Assembly (NCBI GenBank): GCA_947470805.1
Contig: CANIVU010000042.1
Location: 1 to 64,000, forward strand
Source of the DNA: Acidobacteriota bacterium
GTDB taxonomy: Bacteria > Acidobacteriota > Terriglobia > Bryobacterales > Bryobacteraceae
DNA: 64,000 bases
Reading direction: 5' to 3'
The notes beneath the pieces were generated by a model, which did no database searches, was not told the origin of the DNA, and worked only from the letters and a program-made list of their open reading frames with translations. Positions 50,758 to 60,042 of the stretch are shown here, one piece after another; position 1 is the stretch's first letter; every line of letters starts with the position of its first letter. A program made the position numbers and the translations under genes.

Positions 50758-51644
50758 AAGCGGACGCCCTCCGGCGACACGGGCAACTCCGCGATGACGA
50801 CGGCCTGACGCTCCGCGTCGAAGGCCCGGTGATGCGCCTCCAAGGCCCCAACGAGGACCGGTTGCTGATCACCGAGCCCGTGCTCGGCGCCCGGTTCTAC
50901 AAAGCGCACATCGAAGGAATCACGGAGGCGCGCATGGCGGGCCGCGGCTGGGAGTGGGAGGGCGGCTACACGCTGCGCCCGCACCTCTCCTGCAACTACC
51001 GGCCGCGCGACTGGTCATGGGCCTGGACGCCGACCTATGGTCCGGTGATGCTGAACATCTACCTCAAGCGTACGCTGGCGGAGTGGGAACAGTGGCTGGC
51101 CGCCCTGGCCCCGCATGGCTACACGCGAGACACCGAAACAGGCATCTACAAGTGGGGAGACAGCTGGATAACGCTTCGACCGGGTAGCGTACAATTCATG
51201 CGCGGCTACCACACACCCTCCGCCGCGGTGCAGTGGGTGGACGCCGGGCTGCTCGGCTCCCTCCTGCAGCACGAACTTGCATGGGACCTGATCGATGGCG
51301 ACTACCGCGCCTGGATGGCCACCGGGCACACGGCCGCGTCGCTGGCGAATTACCTCCGCGCCGATGGCAGCCAGGAGCGCGGCAATCTCCCTGTGCACAC
51401 CGTGGAAGCGGGCACGCTACGCGATGACGCAGCCATCGCTGAAGCCATCGCCATCTCCTTCGGCCTGCCCGCCGCGACGGACCTTTTGGCGTGGTTCCGC
51501 GAAACGCCGGTCCCCGCGCTCCCGCGCACAATAACCGTGAATCTACCGCGAGACCTAAGCCAGATGTACGAAAGGTCGCCCCTGATGCAAGGCCTGGTCC
51601 GCGCCAACACGCGCGTCTTCTGGAGCTTCTCGTTCGGCGGTTAG
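50745..51644 (+). CDS. Unknown protein coupled to the M48 peptidase
   Basis: This 299-residue protein is of no family I recognise. It starts at a GTG (50745) with a good GGAGG ribosome site inside the end of the M48 gene, so translation is coupled. The N-terminus is mixed beta, with repeated aromatic residues (GRGWEWEGGYTLRPHLSCNY); the C-terminus is helical, with AWDLIDGDYRAWMATGHTAAS. No membrane segment or signal peptide is visible. It probably works with the peptidase, as a partner or substrate adaptor. The upstream extension of the frame is a shadow. Confidence 0.75.
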   Translation: MRFVEADALRRHGQLRDDDGLTLRVEGPVMRLQGPNEDRLLITEPVLGARFYKAHIEGITEARMAGRGWEWEGGYTLRPHLSCNYRPRDWSWAWTPTYGPVMLNIYLKRTLAEWEQWLAALAPHGYTRDTETGIYKWGDSWITLRPGSVQFMRGYHTPSAAVQWVDAGLLGSLLQHELAWDLIDGDYRAWMATGHTAASLANYLRADGSQERGNLPVHTVEAGTLRDDAAIAEAIAISFGLPAATDLLAWFRETPVPALPRTITVNLPRDLSQMYERSPLMQGLVRANTRVFWSFSFGG

Positions 51645-51985
51645 AGGTGGGTAATCCACTGGCGAATGACGGCGGCGAATGCCTCCCGGCGCAAGGCCAA
51701 CTCAGCCGCGTCGGCAAAGCTCACCTGGGCCCGATCCTTACCCAGCCAGTGCAACAACCCCTCCGGATCGTCGATGGCGACGCAGGCCTCCGAGATCGCG
51801 TTCTTCTTCGCCCCGAAGTGCAGAATGACAGCCGTGCCCTTCTTCGCCCGCAGATTCACCGTGGCAAACCACTCAGTAGTCCGGAAGCTCGGCGCATTCC
51901 ATTTTTCGCCTTCGGTGATACTCGGATGAGCTGTGCGGATCACCGCGCACAGCTCGTCAATGAGGGGGTTCGTCTGCTCGGCCAC
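51641..51985 (-). CDS. DUF1801-family protein
   Basis: This 114-residue protein has the YdhG-like/DUF1801 pattern: EGEKWNAPSFRTTEWFATV near residues 26-44 and AVILHFGAKKNAIS. Some family members are found fused to or beside transcriptional regulators; the biochemical role is unknown. It starts 21 bases after the diiron-protein stop on the same strand, so it could be the last gene of that operon. It overlaps the convergent unknown gene by 4 bases. Confidence 0.82.
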   Translation of the reverse strand: MAEQTNPLIDELCAVIRTAHPSITEGEKWNAPSFRTTEWFATVNLRAKKGTAVILHFGAKKNAISEACVAIDDPEGLLHWLGKDRAQVSFADAAELALRREAFAAVIRQWITHL

Positions 51986-52006
51986 TCTGGCTAGCGTAGC
52001 TGATTG

Positions 52007-52663
52007 CTACCGCACCAGCGGCGCACTGGCGTAGGCGTGGTCCAAGATCCCGCAGTACAGCTCCCGGCCTTCGCGCGCCATGCGGAGAAATACCTCCACA
52101 TCCGCCGGATCCTTGACGTTGTTGCTGATAACGCGGAAGAGGTCCTCGCTGTGGTGGGCGTCGGCCTCGCCGTGTCCGGCCAGGAAGTACGTCCCCTTGC
52201 CGTTCAGGTTCAATGCCGTATCGATCCCGCGGGCAATCTGGCCGCCGATATTGCCGCCAAGCGACTCGAGCACAAACATCCAGCCTAACAGGCCGATGGG
52301 GTTCGCCATCTGCGCATAGTAGTATTCCAGCCCGATCATGCGGAGGCACGCCGAGGAGGGCGTCGACACCGCGATGGCAGAGTCCGCCATGCCCAAGTCG
52401 CGGAGATCGGAGGCGGCCCACTTGTCGTGGCCCAGTTCTTCATCGGCATGGTGGAACAGATACCGGGCCAGATCGGGTTGCGTGTTGATGAGGCGCACAC
52501 CAGCCAGGCCGATGACCTGCGCGCTGTGTTGCGCGTAGGCGTAGACATCCTCCATGTACGTCCGGTACTGGATACGGTTCATCTGTTTCGCCGTAATGGC
52601 GGCAACAATCGGGTGGGCCATGACCTGCGAGGAGATGTTCTGTTGGAGTGATTCGAGTTGCAT
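52007..52663 (-). CDS. Heme-oxygenase-like diiron (HDO/TenA-type) protein
   Basis: This 218-residue all-helical protein opens LQQNISSQVMAHPIVAAITA and carries the metal-site-like residues of heme-oxygenase-like diiron oxidases, in LFHHADEELGHDKWAA (near residues 69-84) and HGEADAHHSEDLFRV (near 164-178). Members of this superfamily oxidise fatty acids (UndA), amino acids or other small molecules. Whether this one is active is not known. It follows the acyltransferase gene by 15 bases, suggesting it modifies that enzyme's product. Confidence 0.8.
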   Translation of the reverse strand: MQLESLQQNISSQVMAHPIVAAITAKQMNRIQYRTYMEDVYAYAQHSAQVIGLAGVRLINTQPDLARYLFHHADEELGHDKWAASDLRDLGMADSAIAVSTPSSACLRMIGLEYYYAQMANPIGLLGWMFVLESLGGNIGGQIARGIDTALNLNGKGTYFLAGHGEADAHHSEDLFRVISNNVKDPADVEVFLRMAREGRELYCGILDHAYASAPLVR

Positions 52664-52678
52664 TTTTTCCGGGTTCCT

Positions 52679-53344
52679 TTAGGATTTGAGCATGGGGTGT
52701 TGCATGGCAAAAAACTGATCCGCGAGCGGCATGTCGCAGCTGCGCCAAAGCGGCTCCAGAGATTGAATCGGGAGCTTCATGGTTTCGTGGACGGCGCCTC
52801 CGGCGTAGTGATGTTCGAATCGGCCCGCCTCGCCGGCAGAGTCGAAAAGTATAAAGTCGTAGATCGACTTCGACCAGCTCGGCGACGCAATGATGATGGT
52901 CTGCAGTCCTTCCTGGAAGCACCACTGCCATGCTGTTTTGAAGACCGCGAACATAACGTGCGTATTCTCCGGGGAGCGCAGAACACTCAGCCGGCCGAAC
53001 TGTGCGGCGGGCCGCTCATCCGGATTCAGCACCGTATCCACGTCGATAAAGCGGTTCAACTCCAACGGGCCGTGCCGTCCATTCTGAACACGCATGGTGG
53101 CCAGCGGCGTACCGTCGAGCGAAAAGCCCAGTAGCGAGAACGCCGCCGGGCTACGGTCCAACTCATCCAGCCACGGCCCGCTGTCGTCAACGCCGGGGAC
53201 GCGGCTAAAACCGTCCCTGCGCAACTGCGCCACCAAGTCCCAATCGGCGTCGCTCACAGCGCGGCGGACGATAGCGCGGTGAAGATCGGCCCGCGCATAC
53301 CGCTCATGGCGCGAACTCCGTGGGGATTGAACCAACTGTTCCAT
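52679..53344 (-). CDS. FeeM-like N-acyltransferase (GNAT fold)
   Basis: This 221-residue protein resembles N-acyl amino acid synthases of the FeeM/autoinducer-synthase type. It has an N-terminal strand-helix region VRRAVSDADWDLVAQLRRDG, a central FGRLSVLRSPENTHVMFAVF near residues 116-135, and a C-terminal lid-like end. FeeM joins a fatty acyl group from acyl-ACP to tyrosine. The substrate here is unknown. No ACP or export gene is in the window. The next gene, a diiron oxidase, starts 15 bases later. Other GNAT acyltransferases are the alternative. Confidence 0.68.
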   Translation of the reverse strand: MEQLVQSPRSSRHERYARADLHRAIVRRAVSDADWDLVAQLRRDGFSRVPGVDDSGPWLDELDRSPAAFSLLGFSLDGTPLATMRVQNGRHGPLELNRFIDVDTVLNPDERPAAQFGRLSVLRSPENTHVMFAVFKTAWQWCFQEGLQTIIIASPSWSKSIYDFILFDSAGEAGRFEHHYAGGAVHETMKLPIQSLEPLWRSCDMPLADQFFAMQHPMLKS

Positions 53345-53396
53345 TCTGTGTGCCTCTTCTCAGTCAGCGGAAGCCGGCGGAAAAGAGTGACACAGA
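53345..53396. repeat. Inverted repeat between SDR and acyltransferase genes
   Basis: Arms TCTGTGTGCCTCTT (53345-53358) and AAGAGTGACACAGA (53383-53396) pair at 12 of 14 positions, enclosing a GC-rich loop. It fills the only sizeable gap inside this leftward gene run. It could be a processing site, an attenuator, or an operator. Confidence 0.45.
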
Positions 53397-53403
53397 AAAT
53401 GAA

Positions 53404-54093
53404 TTACCCGCGCCCAGGCAGCGGAATCACAGCGCCGTTCACTTCCGCACCGGCATCGCTCACCAGCCACACCAGCAGGCTCGCCACATTCGCAGGCTGC
53501 ACCCACTTGGCGGGATCCGCATCGGGCATACTGGCGCGGTTGGCGGGCGTATCCATGGTGTTCGGGCTGACGACGTTGGCCCGGATGTTGCACTCGCGAT
53601 TCTCTTCCGCAATCGTACGCACCAGCGAAATGAGCGCCGCCTTCGACGCTCCATAGGCGCCCAGCGTCGCCACCGGCGCCAGTGCGGCGGAGGTCCCGAT
53701 GGCGATGATCGAACCCTGCCGCGCCTTCCGCATCACGGGCAACACGGCGCGCGTCAACACCCACGCCGGGCGCAGGTTCACGGCAATCATCTGCTCCCAC
53801 GTATCGTCGGAGGTTTCATCAACGCGCTGGCCACCGGCAAAACCGCCCACCAGATGGACCACGGCATCAATACGCCCGTACATCTCCATCACATCGGAGA
53901 CCAGCATGTCGACGCCCTCGGCGCTATCGAGCGCGACGGCGAAGTGGGTGAGCGAGGGGTGATCGGCATTCTTCGATCGCGCGCTGCGATCGACACCAAT
54001 GACGCGCGCGCCATTATCCAGAAACGCCTTCGTCACAACGGCACCAAGGCCGCCGCTCGCGCCGGTCACGATCACAACTTTTCCATCAACCAT
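53404..54093 (-). CDS. Short-chain dehydrogenase/reductase
   Basis: This 229-residue SDR has the cofactor motif VIVTGASGGLGAVVTKAF near residues 7-24, NNAG-equivalent HLVGGFAGG, catalytic Ser in IGTSAALAP and the YGASK motif (YxxxK). The residue after the second strand (DRS) suggests NAD over NADP. It oxidises or reduces an alcohol/ketone of unknown identity. Its start overlaps the sulfatase end by 8 bases, so it is translationally linked. It may act in the same pathway as the FeeM-like enzyme. Confidence 0.92.
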   Translation of the reverse strand: MVDGKVVIVTGASGGLGAVVTKAFLDNGARVIGVDRSARSKNADHPSLTHFAVALDSAEGVDMLVSDVMEMYGRIDAVVHLVGGFAGGQRVDETSDDTWEQMIAVNLRPAWVLTRAVLPVMRKARQGSIIAIGTSAALAPVATLGAYGASKAALISLVRTIAEENRECNIRANVVSPNTMDTPANRASMPDADPAKWVQPANVASLLVWLVSDAGAEVNGAVIPLPGRG

Positions 54094-55708
54094 TCAGCTT
54101 CCTCACTTCCACGTATCGCACTTCAACAGGCTTGCCGCCCACGACCACTCGCGCAGCCAATCGCGCCTCGCCGGCTGCCACCGCAATCGAATCAAACACA
54201 CAGCGTTCGGCACCGGCCGGCACCGGGCGGGCCTCTTCTACTCTACCCACCGCGAGGCGCGCCTCGCCTCCACCCCCGGTGGACTTGAACAACAGCGTGA
54301 TCTGGTAACGGGCCGCGGCGCGCACATCCACCTCCCAGCCCTCGGGCTCGTCGCGTCGATCCTGCAGCGTGAGCAGCGTCGGATTCTCTTCGGGAACCCC
54401 AATGTAAATCCGGGGCGGCGCATAGCCGCCGCGCGTGGAACTGACATCGCCGAACCACGTCTCAGTCGCTGCGCGGAGCCGAGCCACTTCGTCGGGCCGG
54501 GCTATCGCGAGATCCCGCGTTTCGCCCGGATCGTTCTGCATGTCGTAGAGCTCGGTGCCATTGGTCAATTTCCAACGCTGCGAACGGGCGGCGTGATTGC
54601 GGAAGATCTGCGGCTGATCGCCCCGGTGCCACTGCGTGTGAATGACACGGTCAGGCCACGGCGCCGTGGGCGTGTTCAACAGCGGCATCAGATTGCGCCC
54701 GTCAAAACGCGGCGGCGGCGACGGGCGAATGGCGCAGGCGTCGAGCAGCGTCGGCAGTACGTCGATGTGCGCGGCGATACGGTCCACCTTGGCGCCGGCG
54801 GCCACCTTCCCCGGCCAGCGGAGGAAGAACGGCACGCGGATCCCACCCTGATACACCGACCCCTTCAACCCGCGCATCCCCGCCACATAGCGCGGCTGTT
54901 GCGGCCCGTTGTCGGTCATGAAAATCAGGATCGTCTTCGCGTCCAGGTTGGTTCGTTTCAGCGTCGCCAGCAGCCGCCCCACATTGTCGTCCAGGTTCTT
55001 CACCATGGCGTAGACCTTCTCCGTGGTGTCGTCGAGACCCTTATTCTTAAACGGCGCAACATAGGCATCGTCCACCTCGAGCGGCGTGTGCGGAGCGTTC
55101 GTAGGGATGTACAGGAAAAAAGGTTTCGCCTGGTTCTCTTGGATAAACCGACTGCCTTCCCGGAAGAAGATATCGGTGCAGTAGCCCTCTACCTTCTCAA
55201 ACTTGCCATTCCGGAGGAGAGTAGGGTTGAAGTAGTGATTGCCGGGAGGCGGATCGGAGGGTTGACTGAGTCCCCCGCCCCCATGAACCAGCGATTCGCC
55301 GAAGCCCTGGTCGTGAGCGCGCATGGGGTAGTTGTCCCCGAGATGCCATTTGCCGAAGATGCCGGTCTTGTACCCGGCGGCGGAGAAGAGCTCGGCGGCG
55401 GTCTGCTCACGCGGGTCCATCATGGAGCGGCCCTTGAAGGTATCGACAATGCCCGTCCGGTAGTTGTAGCGGCCAGTGAGCAGGGACGCCCGCGTGGGCG
55501 AGCAGACTGGGCACACCTGGAACTGCGTGAACTGCGCGCCATCCTTGGCAATCGAATCGATGTTCGGCGTCTGGAGGTGCGTGTTTCCGTGAATGGAGAG
55601 GTCGCCGTAACCCTGGTCATCACTGATGATGAGGATGACATTGGGCCGGGCCGGAGCCGTCGTCTGTGCGACGGCCGCGGCGGAGGCGAGAAAGGCGCGG
55701 CGGGTCAT
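54086..55708 (-). CDS. Secreted type I sulfatase
   Basis: This protein of about 540 residues has a Tat/Sec-like signal MTRRAFLASAAAVAQ (start at 55708; an in-frame Met six codons earlier is possible). The sulfatase fold starts with NVILIISDDQGYGDLS, whose Asp pair binds Ca. The active-site motif CSPTRASLLTGR contains the Cys converted to formylglycine. The phosphatase-like FGKWHLGD segment follows. It removes sulfate esters, probably from a polysaccharide or lipid outside the cytoplasm. A formylglycine-generating enzyme would be encoded elsewhere. It overlaps the SDR gene. Confidence 0.93.
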   Translation of the reverse strand: MTRRAFLASAAAVAQTTAPARPNVILIISDDQGYGDLSIHGNTHLQTPNIDSIAKDGAQFTQFQVCPVCSPTRASLLTGRYNYRTGIVDTFKGRSMMDPREQTAAELFSAAGYKTGIFGKWHLGDNYPMRAHDQGFGESLVHGGGGLSQPSDPPPGNHYFNPTLLRNGKFEKVEGYCTDIFFREGSRFIQENQAKPFFLYIPTNAPHTPLEVDDAYVAPFKNKGLDDTTEKVYAMVKNLDDNVGRLLATLKRTNLDAKTILIFMTDNGPQQPRYVAGMRGLKGSVYQGGIRVPFFLRWPGKVAAGAKVDRIAAHIDVLPTLLDACAIRPSPPPRFDGRNLMPLLNTPTAPWPDRVIHTQWHRGDQPQIFRNHAARSQRWKLTNGTELYDMQNDPGETRDLAIARPDEVARLRAATETWFGDVSSTRGGYAPPRIYIGVPEENPTLLTLQDRRDEPEGWEVDVRAAARYQITLLFKSTGGGGEARLAVGRVEEARPVPAGAERCVFDSIAVAAGEARLAARVVVGGKPVEVRYVEVRKLNG

Positions 55709-55738
55709 GGCCCGCCCAGTGTACACCTATCCGGCCGG

Positions 55739-58242: not shown

Positions 58243-59121
58243 GTGGAAAGACGAACTGGGACCGAGCGGAGGGAGTCGCCAAGGCAGAGAGTGCCGGGCG
58301 GCCACAAGATCACCTTCTGGATCGAGGATAAGGACGGTTCGTGGACGCGGCAGGACGCCGAAATTGGCGACCGGTCGGACACCGGCGTCGGGCTGCTATT
58401 GGCTAAAGAAGTAGAAGCCGGCCAGAACGTCATGGTGGAGGGGGACGGGTTCTCCGGTGGCTCCGGTGGACGGCAGAAGGGCAAGATCTGCTGGTGCCGT
58501 CCCACGGTCGACGGGCGCTTCCGCGCGGGGATCGATCTGTCCATGGCGGCAAACGGCGGAGTCAAGGTGGACGAGAACTTCGTGGACTACTACGAGGTGA
58601 TGGAACTCAGCCCCAGCGCCAGCCTCGAAACGATTCACCGCATCTACCGCATTCTGGCGCAACGCCTGCACCCGGATAATAGCGAGACCGGCAGCAACGA
58701 GGCGTTCAAGCAATTGGTGAGCGCCTACAAGATTCTTTCGGACCCGGAGCAGCGGGCGTCGTTCGACTCCACGCGCGGCGTCAAACAGCAGGTCCATTGG
58801 CGCGTGTTCGACCAGAACTCGGCAACCCCGAGCGTTGAACAGGAACAGATGAAACGGCGCGGCGTGCTGAAGGCGCTTTACTTGAAACGGCTGCGCGAAG
58901 CGGAAAACCCGGGGATGAACATGATCGAAATGGAGGCGCTGCTGGGGACGCCGCGGGAGCACCTGGACTTCACCATGTGGTTCCTGAAGGAGCAAGGATG
59001 GGTCGTCCGGACCGATAGCGGACGGTACTCCATCACCGTGAAGGGCGTCGAGCAGGCGGAAAAGTTGCAGGTCTGGGCGCCGCAGCCAACCGAGCATCTC
59101 CAATTGGAGCCGGCCTACTAA
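58243..59121 (+). CDS. PilZ - J-domain - winged-helix-like fusion protein (copy 1)
   Basis: This 292-residue protein starts at GTG after GGGA. The N-terminal PilZ-like domain (about 10-100) has both cyclic-di-GMP motifs, RESPR (RxxxR) near 11-15 and DRSDTG (DxSxxG) near 43-48, with the GVGLLL strand and RFRAGIDL ending. A DnaJ J-domain follows (about 115-180) with the essential HPD in QRLHPDNSETG. The C-terminal part has a winged-helix-like pattern, GTPREHLDFTMWFLKEQGWV to SITVKGVEQAE. It is inferred to link cyclic-di-GMP to a Hsp70 partner. The next gene is a paralogue 15 bases away. Confidence 0.8.
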   Translation: MERRTGTERRESPRQRVPGGHKITFWIEDKDGSWTRQDAEIGDRSDTGVGLLLAKEVEAGQNVMVEGDGFSGGSGGRQKGKICWCRPTVDGRFRAGIDLSMAANGGVKVDENFVDYYEVMELSPSASLETIHRIYRILAQRLHPDNSETGSNEAFKQLVSAYKILSDPEQRASFDSTRGVKQQVHWRVFDQNSATPSVEQEQMKRRGVLKALYLKRLREAENPGMNMIEMEALLGTPREHLDFTMWFLKEQGWVVRTDSGRYSITVKGVEQAEKLQVWAPQPTEHLQLEPAY

Positions 59122-59136
59122 AGTTTCGGCGGTCCC

Positions 59137-60042
59137 ATGCCGATGGAGCCATCAGTGAATACCGCAAAGGCTCCAGAACGACGAAAAAAGACGCGCGGCG
59201 AGAAGCAGCCAACACAATCGGCGCAGCTGTGGCTGGAGCGGCACGACGGAACCTGGCAGAAGCTGGCGGTTCAGGTACAGGATACCGGGGAGTACGGCGT
59301 CGGACTTCTCATGGGGGAGAAGATTCGCGACGGGTCGGCAGTGATGCTGGAAGGCGCGGGGTTAGCGGCGCCGGACGGTGGGCGCCCACGTGGCCGGGTG
59401 GCGTGGTGCACAGCGGTCTCACCCGGGGTTTTCCGGGCCGGGATTTCAATGGAAGACGGACGGGAAGAACGCGGTTCTGGCACGGCCGAGTTTGAAGACT
59501 TCTACGAGACGCTGGAAGTGAATCCCGTCGCGACGGCGGATACGATCCACAAAATCTATCGGGTACTGGCCCACCGCATGCATCCGGACAACCTGGAAAG
59601 CGGCAGTGAAGAGCAGTTCAAGAAACTGGTCCGGGCTTACCGTGTGCTCTCCGATCCGGAGCAGCGAGCGGCGTTCGATGTCGAGCGTTCACGGGTCACC
59701 ACCAAACAGTGGCGGATCTTCGACCCGGAATCGGCGGCCCCGGGCCTGGAACAGGAACAGCGAAAACGCCGGGCAATCCTCGCGGTGCTCTACCACAAGC
59801 GCATGCGCCAGCCCGAAAAATGCGGAATTGGCATCCCGGAGCTGGAAGACCTGCTGGCCGTCCCTCGTGAACATCTGGAATTCCCGCTCTGGTTCATGAA
59901 GGAACAAGGCTGGGTACTCCGCAGCGATGGCGGACAGCACTCGATCACGGCAAAGGGCGTGGATTACGCAGAGTCGACCGGGGCATGGCAGCCGCCGATG
60001 TCGCGGAACTCGGGACTTCTTTCGGCAGGGGTGCCGCAGTAA
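59137..60042 (+). CDS. PilZ-like - J-domain - winged-helix-like fusion protein (copy 2)
   Basis: This 301-residue protein is a paralogue of the preceding gene, with similar domains in the same order. The N-terminal motif is RRKKTR, but the second PilZ motif reads DTGEYG, with Gly in place of Ser, so cyclic-di-GMP binding may be lost. The J-domain keeps HPD in HRMHPDNLESG. The C-terminal module (VPREHLEFPLWFMKEQGWVL) is also kept. It probably arose by tandem duplication and then diverged. The 3' end overlaps the antisense frameshifted hydrolase-like gene by 98 bases. Confidence 0.78.
   Translation: MPMEPSVNTAKAPERRKKTRGEKQPTQSAQLWLERHDGTWQKLAVQVQDTGEYGVGLLMGEKIRDGSAVMLEGAGLAAPDGGRPRGRVAWCTAVSPGVFRAGISMEDGREERGSGTAEFEDFYETLEVNPVATADTIHKIYRVLAHRMHPDNLESGSEEQFKKLVRAYRVLSDPEQRAAFDVERSRVTTKQWRIFDPESAAPGLEQEQRKRRAILAVLYHKRMRQPEKCGIGIPELEDLLAVPREHLEFPLWFMKEQGWVLRSDGGQHSITAKGVDYAESTGAWQPPMSRNSGLLSAGVPQ

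What the first reader, a model, noticed from the sequence alone, without database searches (positions are those of the whole stretch)
51641..55708. Candidate small biosynthetic operon: sulfatase, SDR, FeeM-like acyltransferase, diiron oxidase, DUF1801
Five same-strand genes are spaced 8 bases overlapping to 60 bases apart. A FeeM-like enzyme makes N-acyl amino acids in known examples, and the neighbouring heme-oxygenase-like diiron protein is of a superfamily that includes fatty-acid decarboxylases. Coupling these suggests an oxidised N-acyl product, with SDR and sulfatase adding further steps. No ACP or transporter is present.
Basis: inference. Interest (0 to 1): 0.65.

Follow-up and report, generated by a model that had tools for sequence, protein, structure and literature searches.

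The report
Roaming acyltransferase and diiron-oxidase gene pair
Two adjacent genes, one for an enzyme built like those that attach fatty acyl groups to amino acids and one for an iron enzyme that activates oxygen, travel together between soil bacteria and probably make an undescribed oxidised fatty amide; the sulfatase, dehydrogenase and DUF1801 genes beside them look like ordinary neighbours.

Summary
The five ORFs are real and spaced as stated, but the proposed five-gene operon does not hold. In 13 of 18 other genomes of the genus, SDR and sulfatase lie together without the pair; one relative (G572) keeps DUF1801 and SDR with unrelated DNA in place of the pair. [quoted passage not shown] It recurs elsewhere in G571 (intact, 69/76% identity) and G569 (both genes broken). 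DNA homology stops at the pair. HDOs also sit beside FeeM-type acyltransferases in G317, G490, G613 and two proteobacterial plasmids; 16 of 20 plasmid HDO loci read carry a 'thermostable hemolysin' gene instead. The acyltransferase model matches FeeM best (Z 17.4). All six HDO metal ligands are present. But the glutamate that FeeM-type N-acyl amino acid synthases need is glutamine here, so a plain FeeM reaction is doubtful. Best reading: a mobile two-enzyme acylation/oxidation cassette, product unknown. I found no description of this pairing in the open-access papers searched.

The parts
52679..53344 (-). FeeM/LuxI-fold GNAT acyltransferase, 221 aa; invariant R42, D63, R85, R118; Gln115 where relatives have the catalytic Glu; first gene of the pair
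52007..52663 (-). [quoted passage not shown] predicted ligands E76, H79, E133, H164, D168, H171; second gene of the pair
53345..53403 (-). 59-bp gap between SDR stop and acyltransferase start; near the upstream edge of the pair (DNA similarity to G571 spans window 52014-53311)
53404..54093 (-). SDR oxidoreductase: neighbour from the genus-conserved block, not part of the mobile pair
54086..55726 (-). sulfatase with Tat-like N-terminus: neighbour from the genus-conserved block, not part of the mobile pair
51641..51985 (-). DUF1801 protein: present in G572 without the pair, no hit on the G571 contig with the pair; not part of the unit

Best explanation
A horizontally moving two-gene biosynthetic cassette. 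Gene 1 is an acyltransferase of the FeeM/LuxI branch of the GNAT fold; it moves a fatty acyl group from ACP or CoA (supplied by the host, as no ligase or ACP is among the genes identified next to it) to a small amine-bearing acceptor. Gene 2 is a 3-His/3-carboxylate HDO that activates O2 and oxidises the acylated product or the acceptor itself, by desaturation, oxidative decarboxylation or N-oxygenation. The product would be an oxidised acyl amide used as a signal, surfactant or defence compound. Shown: the two genes are the unit, they are under purifying selection, the acyltransferase fold and the HDO ligand set fit, and HDOs of this branch repeatedly sit beside FeeM-type acyltransferases. 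Inferred: horizontal movement (from the patchy, displaced occurrence), substrates, order of steps, product. The loss of the FeeM catalytic Glu suggests an acceptor that needs no general base (for example an N-oxygenated amine made by the HDO first), or another base.
For: Pair conserved as a unit: a G571 contig carries acyltransferase (69%) then HDO (76%) with no DNA similarity beyond window 52014-53311; G569 carries both, both with stops, the acyltransferase also frameshifted. In the whole family held (237 genomes) the acyltransferase occurs in 3 genomes and each has the HDO beside it. The two nearest HDO relatives outside the genus in the phylum sample, G317 (42%) and G490 (39%), have the HDO directly beside a FeeM-cNMP fusion in swapped order. 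G613, same family but another genus, has fatty-acid desaturase, weak FeeM-like gene, HDO in a row. Agarilytica and Deefgea plasmids have FeeM-like then HDO (Deefgea below the Pfam cut-off). 16 of 20 plasmid HDO loci read carry thermostable-hemolysin, and all 12 of them whose records are annotated across the operon list AMP-binding and SDR genes there too. HDO tree: window, G571, G317, G490 together, 96/95 and 91/81. Fold. Ligands: E76, E133, H164, D168, H171 in 38 of 38 HDO rows, H79 in 35 of 38, aligned with MboA's six ligands (PMC13185094 passages).
Against: The pair is rare: 3 of 237 family genomes, and the acyltransferase alone in 1 of 396 sampled phylum genomes, the window's own. Pfam FeeM score is below the cut-off (19.7 against 27). 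The catalytic Glu is missing. 80 betaproteobacterial loci with the nearest acyltransferase relatives (23-33%) have no HDO within the flanks held, up to 6 kb. Of 23 acidobacterial HDO loci read, 17 have no recognised acyltransferase of this kind. No substrate or product evidence exists. The single-sequence HDO model failed (pLDDT 35), so its fold rests on sequence profiles.
Confidence: 0.55

Rival explanations
1. All five genes form one pathway, as first proposed: acyltransferase and HDO make an oxidised N-acyl product which the SDR and sulfatase modify, with DUF1801 accessory.
For: Same strand and tight spacing; SDR genes also follow HDOs in the thermostable-hemolysin plasmid operons.
Against: SDR and sulfatase lie together without the pair in 13 of 18 other genus genomes; in 9 of these the next conserved block begins within 200 bp of the SDR end. 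G572 keeps DUF1801 (87%) and SDR (95%) without the pair. G571 carries the pair on another contig than its SDR and sulfatase. The window SDR is only 25-27% identical to two plasmid-operon SDRs compared. The sulfatase has a Tat-like start, so probably acts outside the cytosol (inference).
Confidence: 0.07
2. The acyltransferase is a plain FeeM-type N-acyl amino acid synthase and the HDO is an unrelated neighbour.
For: FeeM is the best structural match; acyltransferase relatives in Betaproteobacteria have no HDO nearby.
Against: The pair occurs together in three genomes, in one of them decayed together, and the pairing recurs in G317, G490, G613, Agarilytica and Deefgea; the catalytic Glu is Gln.
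Confidence: 0.13
3. The HDO acts first, N-oxygenating an amino acid or amine; the acyltransferase then acylates the resulting hydroxylamine to a hydroxamate, for which no general-base Glu is needed.
For: The catalytic Glu is replaced in 5 of 5 intact acidobacterial HDO-linked acyltransferases (Q, Q, T, T, L); HDOs such as SznF N-oxygenate (PMC13108848, passages read).
Against: The two proteobacterial HDO-linked enzymes keep a Glu three residues before the Arg (alignment, read by eye because MAFFT gapped that column); HDOs near or fused to fatty-acid genes (FA desaturase, AMP ligase, KAS III) point to acyl substrates instead.
Confidence: 0.15
4. The acyltransferase has lost activity and is a regulatory or scaffold protein for the HDO, which acts on fatty acids in the manner of UndA.
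For: Catalytic Glu missing; other HDO lineages are linked or fused to fatty-acid enzymes (AMP ligase, KAS III).
Against: The fold core and R42, D63, R85, R118 are kept; dN/dS 0.145.
Confidence: 0.1

Closest known systems
FeeM-type N-acyl amino acid synthases (FeeM, Nas354; PDB 2G0B, PF21926)
   Same: Best structural match of the acyltransferase (Z 17.4, 173 residues, 3.0 A); weak profile match over residues 53-171
   Different: Below the Pfam cut-off; 12% identity; catalytic Glu replaced by Gln115; partnered by an HDO
Thermostable-hemolysin (dth) operons of Vibrio and others: PF12261, AMP-binding, HDO, SDR, TPR
   Same: HDO of the same Pfam family (about 22-27% identity) beside a protein whose profile aligns weakly with the window acyltransferase family (E 4e-4, probability 35%)
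   Different: Window lacks the ligase; its SDR is not part of the unit; different acyltransferase family; separate HDO branch
Characterised HDOs (MboA, UndA, SznF, BesC, AetD, CADD)
   Same: Six-ligand 3H/3C set aligned with MboA
   Different: Profile matches to the PDB are remote (MboA E 6e-8; nearest chain 3DDE, function unknown); no characterised HDO partner of FeeM type found in the papers searched
LuxI-type acyl-homoserine lactone synthases (LasI, TofI, BjaI)
   Same: Same fold, Z 12.8-14.1; the partner enzyme in G490 passes the Autoind_synth cut-off (28.0 against 24)
   Different: The window protein has no Autoind_synth match at E up to 1

Membership tests
HDO superfamily, 3H/3C | Curated profile (PF14518) | tested here: met
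   63.4 bits, cut-off 28.9
HDO superfamily, 3H/3C | Three His and three carboxylate ligands at the conserved places | tested here: met
   E76, H79, E133, H164, D168, H171 align with MboA E86, H89, E143, H172, D176, H181 (ligand names from PMC13185094); conserved across rows
HDO superfamily, 3H/3C | Seven-helix fold by structure | tested here: inconclusive
   Single-sequence model pLDDT 35
HDO superfamily, 3H/3C | Binds two metals and activates O2 | not testable with these tools
   needs protein
[quoted passage not shown]
   model pLDDT 82
FeeM-type N-acyl amino acid synthase | Score above PF21926 cut-off | tested here: not met
   19.7 bits, cut-off 27; the ortholog in G571 19.9
FeeM-type N-acyl amino acid synthase | Catalytic Glu (FeeM Glu95, Nas354 Glu103) | tested here: not met
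   Gln115 in the window and G571; Glu in at least 90% of the 28 aligned rows at that column. Equivalence to Glu95 is inferred from the motif and from the ends of the structural alignment (model 22-201 to chain 3-185), not read residue by residue
FeeM-type N-acyl amino acid synthase | Uses acyl-ACP and an amino acid | not testable with these tools
   needs assay
LuxI AHL synthase | Autoind_synth profile PF00765 | tested here: not met
   no match at E up to 1
Thermostable-hemolysin (dth) type operon | PF12261 protein plus AMP-binding ligase beside the HDO | tested here: not met
   neither among the five proteins and the upstream neighbour DUF6454
UndA-like fatty-acid decarboxylase | Fatty acid substrate and terminal alkene product | not testable with these tools
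   needs assay; UndA did not appear among the PDB profile matches at E up to 1

The most novel reading that the evidence does not exclude
FeeM/LuxI-fold acyltransferases and HDOs form a recurrent, undescribed two-enzyme pathway type across Acidobacteriota and Proteobacteria, assembled more than once with different acyltransferase partners (free, cNMP-fused, thermostable-hemolysin type). It makes oxidised acyl amides as signals or surfactants. On this reading the Vibrio 'thermostable hemolysin' is not a pore-former but an acyltransferase whose lipid product lyses cells, and the acidobacterial branch uses a FeeM fold with a lost catalytic Glu on an HDO-made acceptor.
Probability: 0.3. Interest if true: 0.82.

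Novelty: new variant of a known kind. Interest (0 to 1): 0.6.

Why it matters
HDOs are a superfamily of over ten thousand members of which about a dozen have validated functions (PMC13108848, passages read). A minimal two-gene pairing with an acyl-amide-forming fold gives a direct handle on the substrate class of a whole HDO branch, and is small enough to test by expressing two genes. If right, it links acyl-amide chemistry to O2-activating diiron enzymes in soil bacteria and suggests a chemical explanation for 'thermostable hemolysin' genes of Vibrio.

Tried and rejected
Five-gene operon: rejected on synteny. SDR as kin of the plasmid-operon SDRs: 25-27% identity, no more than a generic SDR match. 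Methylibium 218-aa gene beside its HDO as an acyltransferase: no Pfam match, no profile match. Direct BLAST of the window acyltransferase to thermostable hemolysin: no significant match; only profile comparison gives a weak link (A6 to A5 gave nothing; HDO negative controls gave nothing). The Burkholderiales-type profile against the FeeM-cNMP set was also weak (probability 7%). HDO in viral contigs: 5 remote loci, no partner found. Partner FeeM-cNMP searched across 366 phylum genomes: nearly all of 268 hits are the cNMP domain only; among the matches listed (the list was cut) only G317 and G357 cover the acyltransferase domain, and the 3.4-kb G357 contig shows no HDO. The first family search with 120 other genomes missed G571 and G569 because they were not in the sample (corrected). 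Single-sequence HDO model useless. One junk dN/dS line for SDR against G571 was a placeholder slip and is dropped; YN00 failed for the pair there. Direct residue mapping to FeeM by sequence search of the PDB failed. HMM hits on L123, L124 and L100 with profile feem2 are circular, since it was built from them; the Pfam results are the independent test. Of 52 plasmid records with HDO matches I read 20; the 23 Pseudomonas records and 9 others were not read. Of 12 family HDO places I read 6; of 19 phylum places 14; G514 and G515 only with about 1.5 kb on each side.
Full report
What is there. One search confirms five same-strand ORFs with the stated spacing; name them DUF1801, Haem_oxygenas_2 (HDO), a sub-threshold FeeM match, SDR and sulfatase. 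The next genes upstream are DUF6454 and a sodium/proton exchanger. The sequence of the pair was re-read.

Which genes belong together. A DNA search of the 12-kb region in the 19 genomes of the genus separates two things. SDR and sulfatase lie side by side in 13 of the 18 other genomes (G572, G563, G564, G565, G113, G571, G570, G568, G567, G078, G569, G004, G561), and in 9 of these 13 the next conserved block starts within 200 bp of the SDR end, which leaves no room for the pair. The match list was cut, so 13 is a lower bound. In G572 DUF1801 (87%) and SDR (95%) are present with about 0.5 kb of unrelated DNA between them and no trace of the pair. The region homologous to window 52014-53311, that is acyltransferase plus HDO and nothing more, occurs instead on a separate contig of G571 (69% and 76% protein identity, same order) and in G569, where both genes carry stop codons and the acyltransferase is also frameshifted. 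In all 237 genomes of the family held, the acyltransferase is found in these 3 genomes only, and the HDO is beside it in each. So the unit is the pair. NG86 dN/dS against G571 is 0.145 and 0.071 (dS near saturation). Whether a mobile element carried it was not tested.

The acyltransferase. An AlphaFold2 model from 28 sequences (pLDDT 82) finds FeeM first in Foldseek (E 9e-10) and by VIA-align (Z 17.4, 173 residues, 3.0 A; next entry 15.4; LasI 14.0, TofI 14.1). R42, D63, R85 and R118 are invariant in the 28-row alignment. Position 115 is Glu in at least 90% of those rows but Gln in the window and in G571. PMC4897644 (passages read) reports that Glu103 of Nas354, matched to Glu95 of FeeM, is needed for activity. 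That Gln115 sits at this place is my inference from the motif and from the ends of the structural alignment. The nearest sequence relatives outside the genus are 80 kept loci of 83 found, all Betaproteobacteria by their record titles, most of them Burkholderiales, at 23-33% identity; none has an HDO within the flanks held, and two of the annotated plasmid relatives lie next to EAL-domain genes.

The diiron protein. Its nearest solved relative is 3DDE, of unknown function. The profile aligns the six ligands with MboA (ligand list from PMC13185094, passages read). In 38 HDO rows five of the six are invariant and H79 is kept in 35, the exceptions being three HDOs fused to a KAS III-like domain. 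The review PMC13108848 (passages read) describes this 3H/3C set as the common one and about a dozen HDOs as functionally validated.

How general is the pairing. In Acidobacteriota, of 23 HDO loci read, 6 have a FeeM-type gene adjacent: the window, G571, G569 (broken), G317 and G490 (FeeM-cNMP fusions with 51.2 and 49.8 bits to PF21926, order swapped) and G613 (FeeM-like 14.8 bits by Pfam, 2.8e-14 by my own profile, next to a fatty-acid desaturase). The other 17 showed none with my profiles, which may miss divergent ones; three of them are KAS III-HDO fusions. On plasmids, of 52 matching records 20 were read: 16 carry a thermostable-hemolysin gene (PF12261 or my profile of it), and the 12 annotated ones list an AMP-binding gene and an SDR gene with it; 2 (Agarilytica, Deefgea) carry a FeeM-like gene directly before the HDO; 2 neither. 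FeeM-type genes are scarce: the own genome has one PF21926 match over the cut-off. The HDO tree puts the window, G571, G317 and G490 together (96/95; 91/81) and all FeeM-paired plus KAS III-fused HDOs on one side (95/89), apart from the thermostable-hemolysin HDOs; several long branches make the deeper placing unsure, and Methylibium was left out of the second tree. The HDOs of window and G317/G490 are 38-42% identical while their acyltransferases are 18-20% identical with different domain make-up, which fits partner replacement but could also be faster change.

Mechanism. Shown: unit, selection, acyltransferase fold, HDO ligand set, recurrence. Inferred: acyl transfer to a small acceptor by gene 1, O2-dependent oxidation by gene 2, host-supplied acyl-ACP or acyl-CoA. 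Against plain FeeM chemistry stands the missing Glu, replaced in 5 of 5 intact acidobacterial HDO-linked enzymes (Q, Q, T, T, L), whereas the two plasmid enzymes keep a Glu at that motif (read by eye around a gap). One reading is that the acceptor is first oxidised by the HDO and needs no general base.

Literature. Searches for HDO with acyltransferase and neighbourhood terms, thermostable hemolysin with AMP-binding and iron-containing redox enzyme, FeeM with heme oxygenase, HDO with UndA and networks, N-acyl with HDO terms, N-acyltyrosine with enamide terms, thermostable hemolysin with acyltransferase, N-acyl amino acid synthase with iron-containing redox enzyme, and dth returned no description of this pairing in their listings; only open-access papers are held. 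PMC12208996 (passages read) lists DthC, an adenylate-forming enzyme beside the delta-thermostable hemolysin of V. cholerae, as predicted for long-chain fatty acids. PMC13232832 (passages read) describes an HDO needed for desiccation tolerance; a search of its text for acyltransferase gave nothing.

Verdict. Observation confirmed, interpretation partly supported: a real acyltransferase-HDO pair that moves as a unit; SDR, sulfatase and DUF1801 are neighbours. A new variant of known enzyme kinds, with an open and testable product.

Noticed in passing
L010, L011, L096-L099, L101, L147-L154, L156: Thermostable hemolysin (PF12261) aligns weakly by profile with the window acyltransferase family (E 4e-4, probability 35%), and a Glu and a Gly in its matching stretch are invariant in 12 of 12. 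Since N-acyl amino acid synthase genes give haemolysis in E. coli (PMC4897644, passages), the name may reflect an enzyme product.
   Followed up: partly
L126 6440-8431, L127 4721-6871, L131 4641-6539: HDO fused to a KAS III-like domain in three Acidobacteriota genomes, followed by a DUF6999 gene in L126 and L131; the H79 ligand is Asp in all three.
   Followed up: partly
L123 5328-6467, L124 5505-6632, L207 528-1850: FeeM/autoinducer-synthase-like acyltransferases fused to a cyclic-nucleotide-binding domain, suggesting cyclic-nucleotide control of acyl-amide synthesis.
   Followed up: partly
L208 460-3549: G613 cluster: fatty-acid desaturase, FeeM-like, HDO and an unidentified 238-aa gene, same strand.
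   Followed up: partly
L007, L008: FeeM-like genes of Paraburkholderia plasmids lie just upstream of EAL-domain genes, hinting at a c-di-GMP link.
   Followed up: no
window 58243-60042: Two tandem DnaJ-domain proteins, the first with a weak PilZ match just under its cut-off; the downstream copies in relatives are about 48% identical to the first.
   Followed up: no
HDO residue E113 (within window 52007-52663): A Glu between the first and second ligand helices is shared by window, G571, G317 and G490 and by only one of the other 34 HDO rows; it could be a seventh ligand as in 3H/4C HDOs.
   Followed up: no
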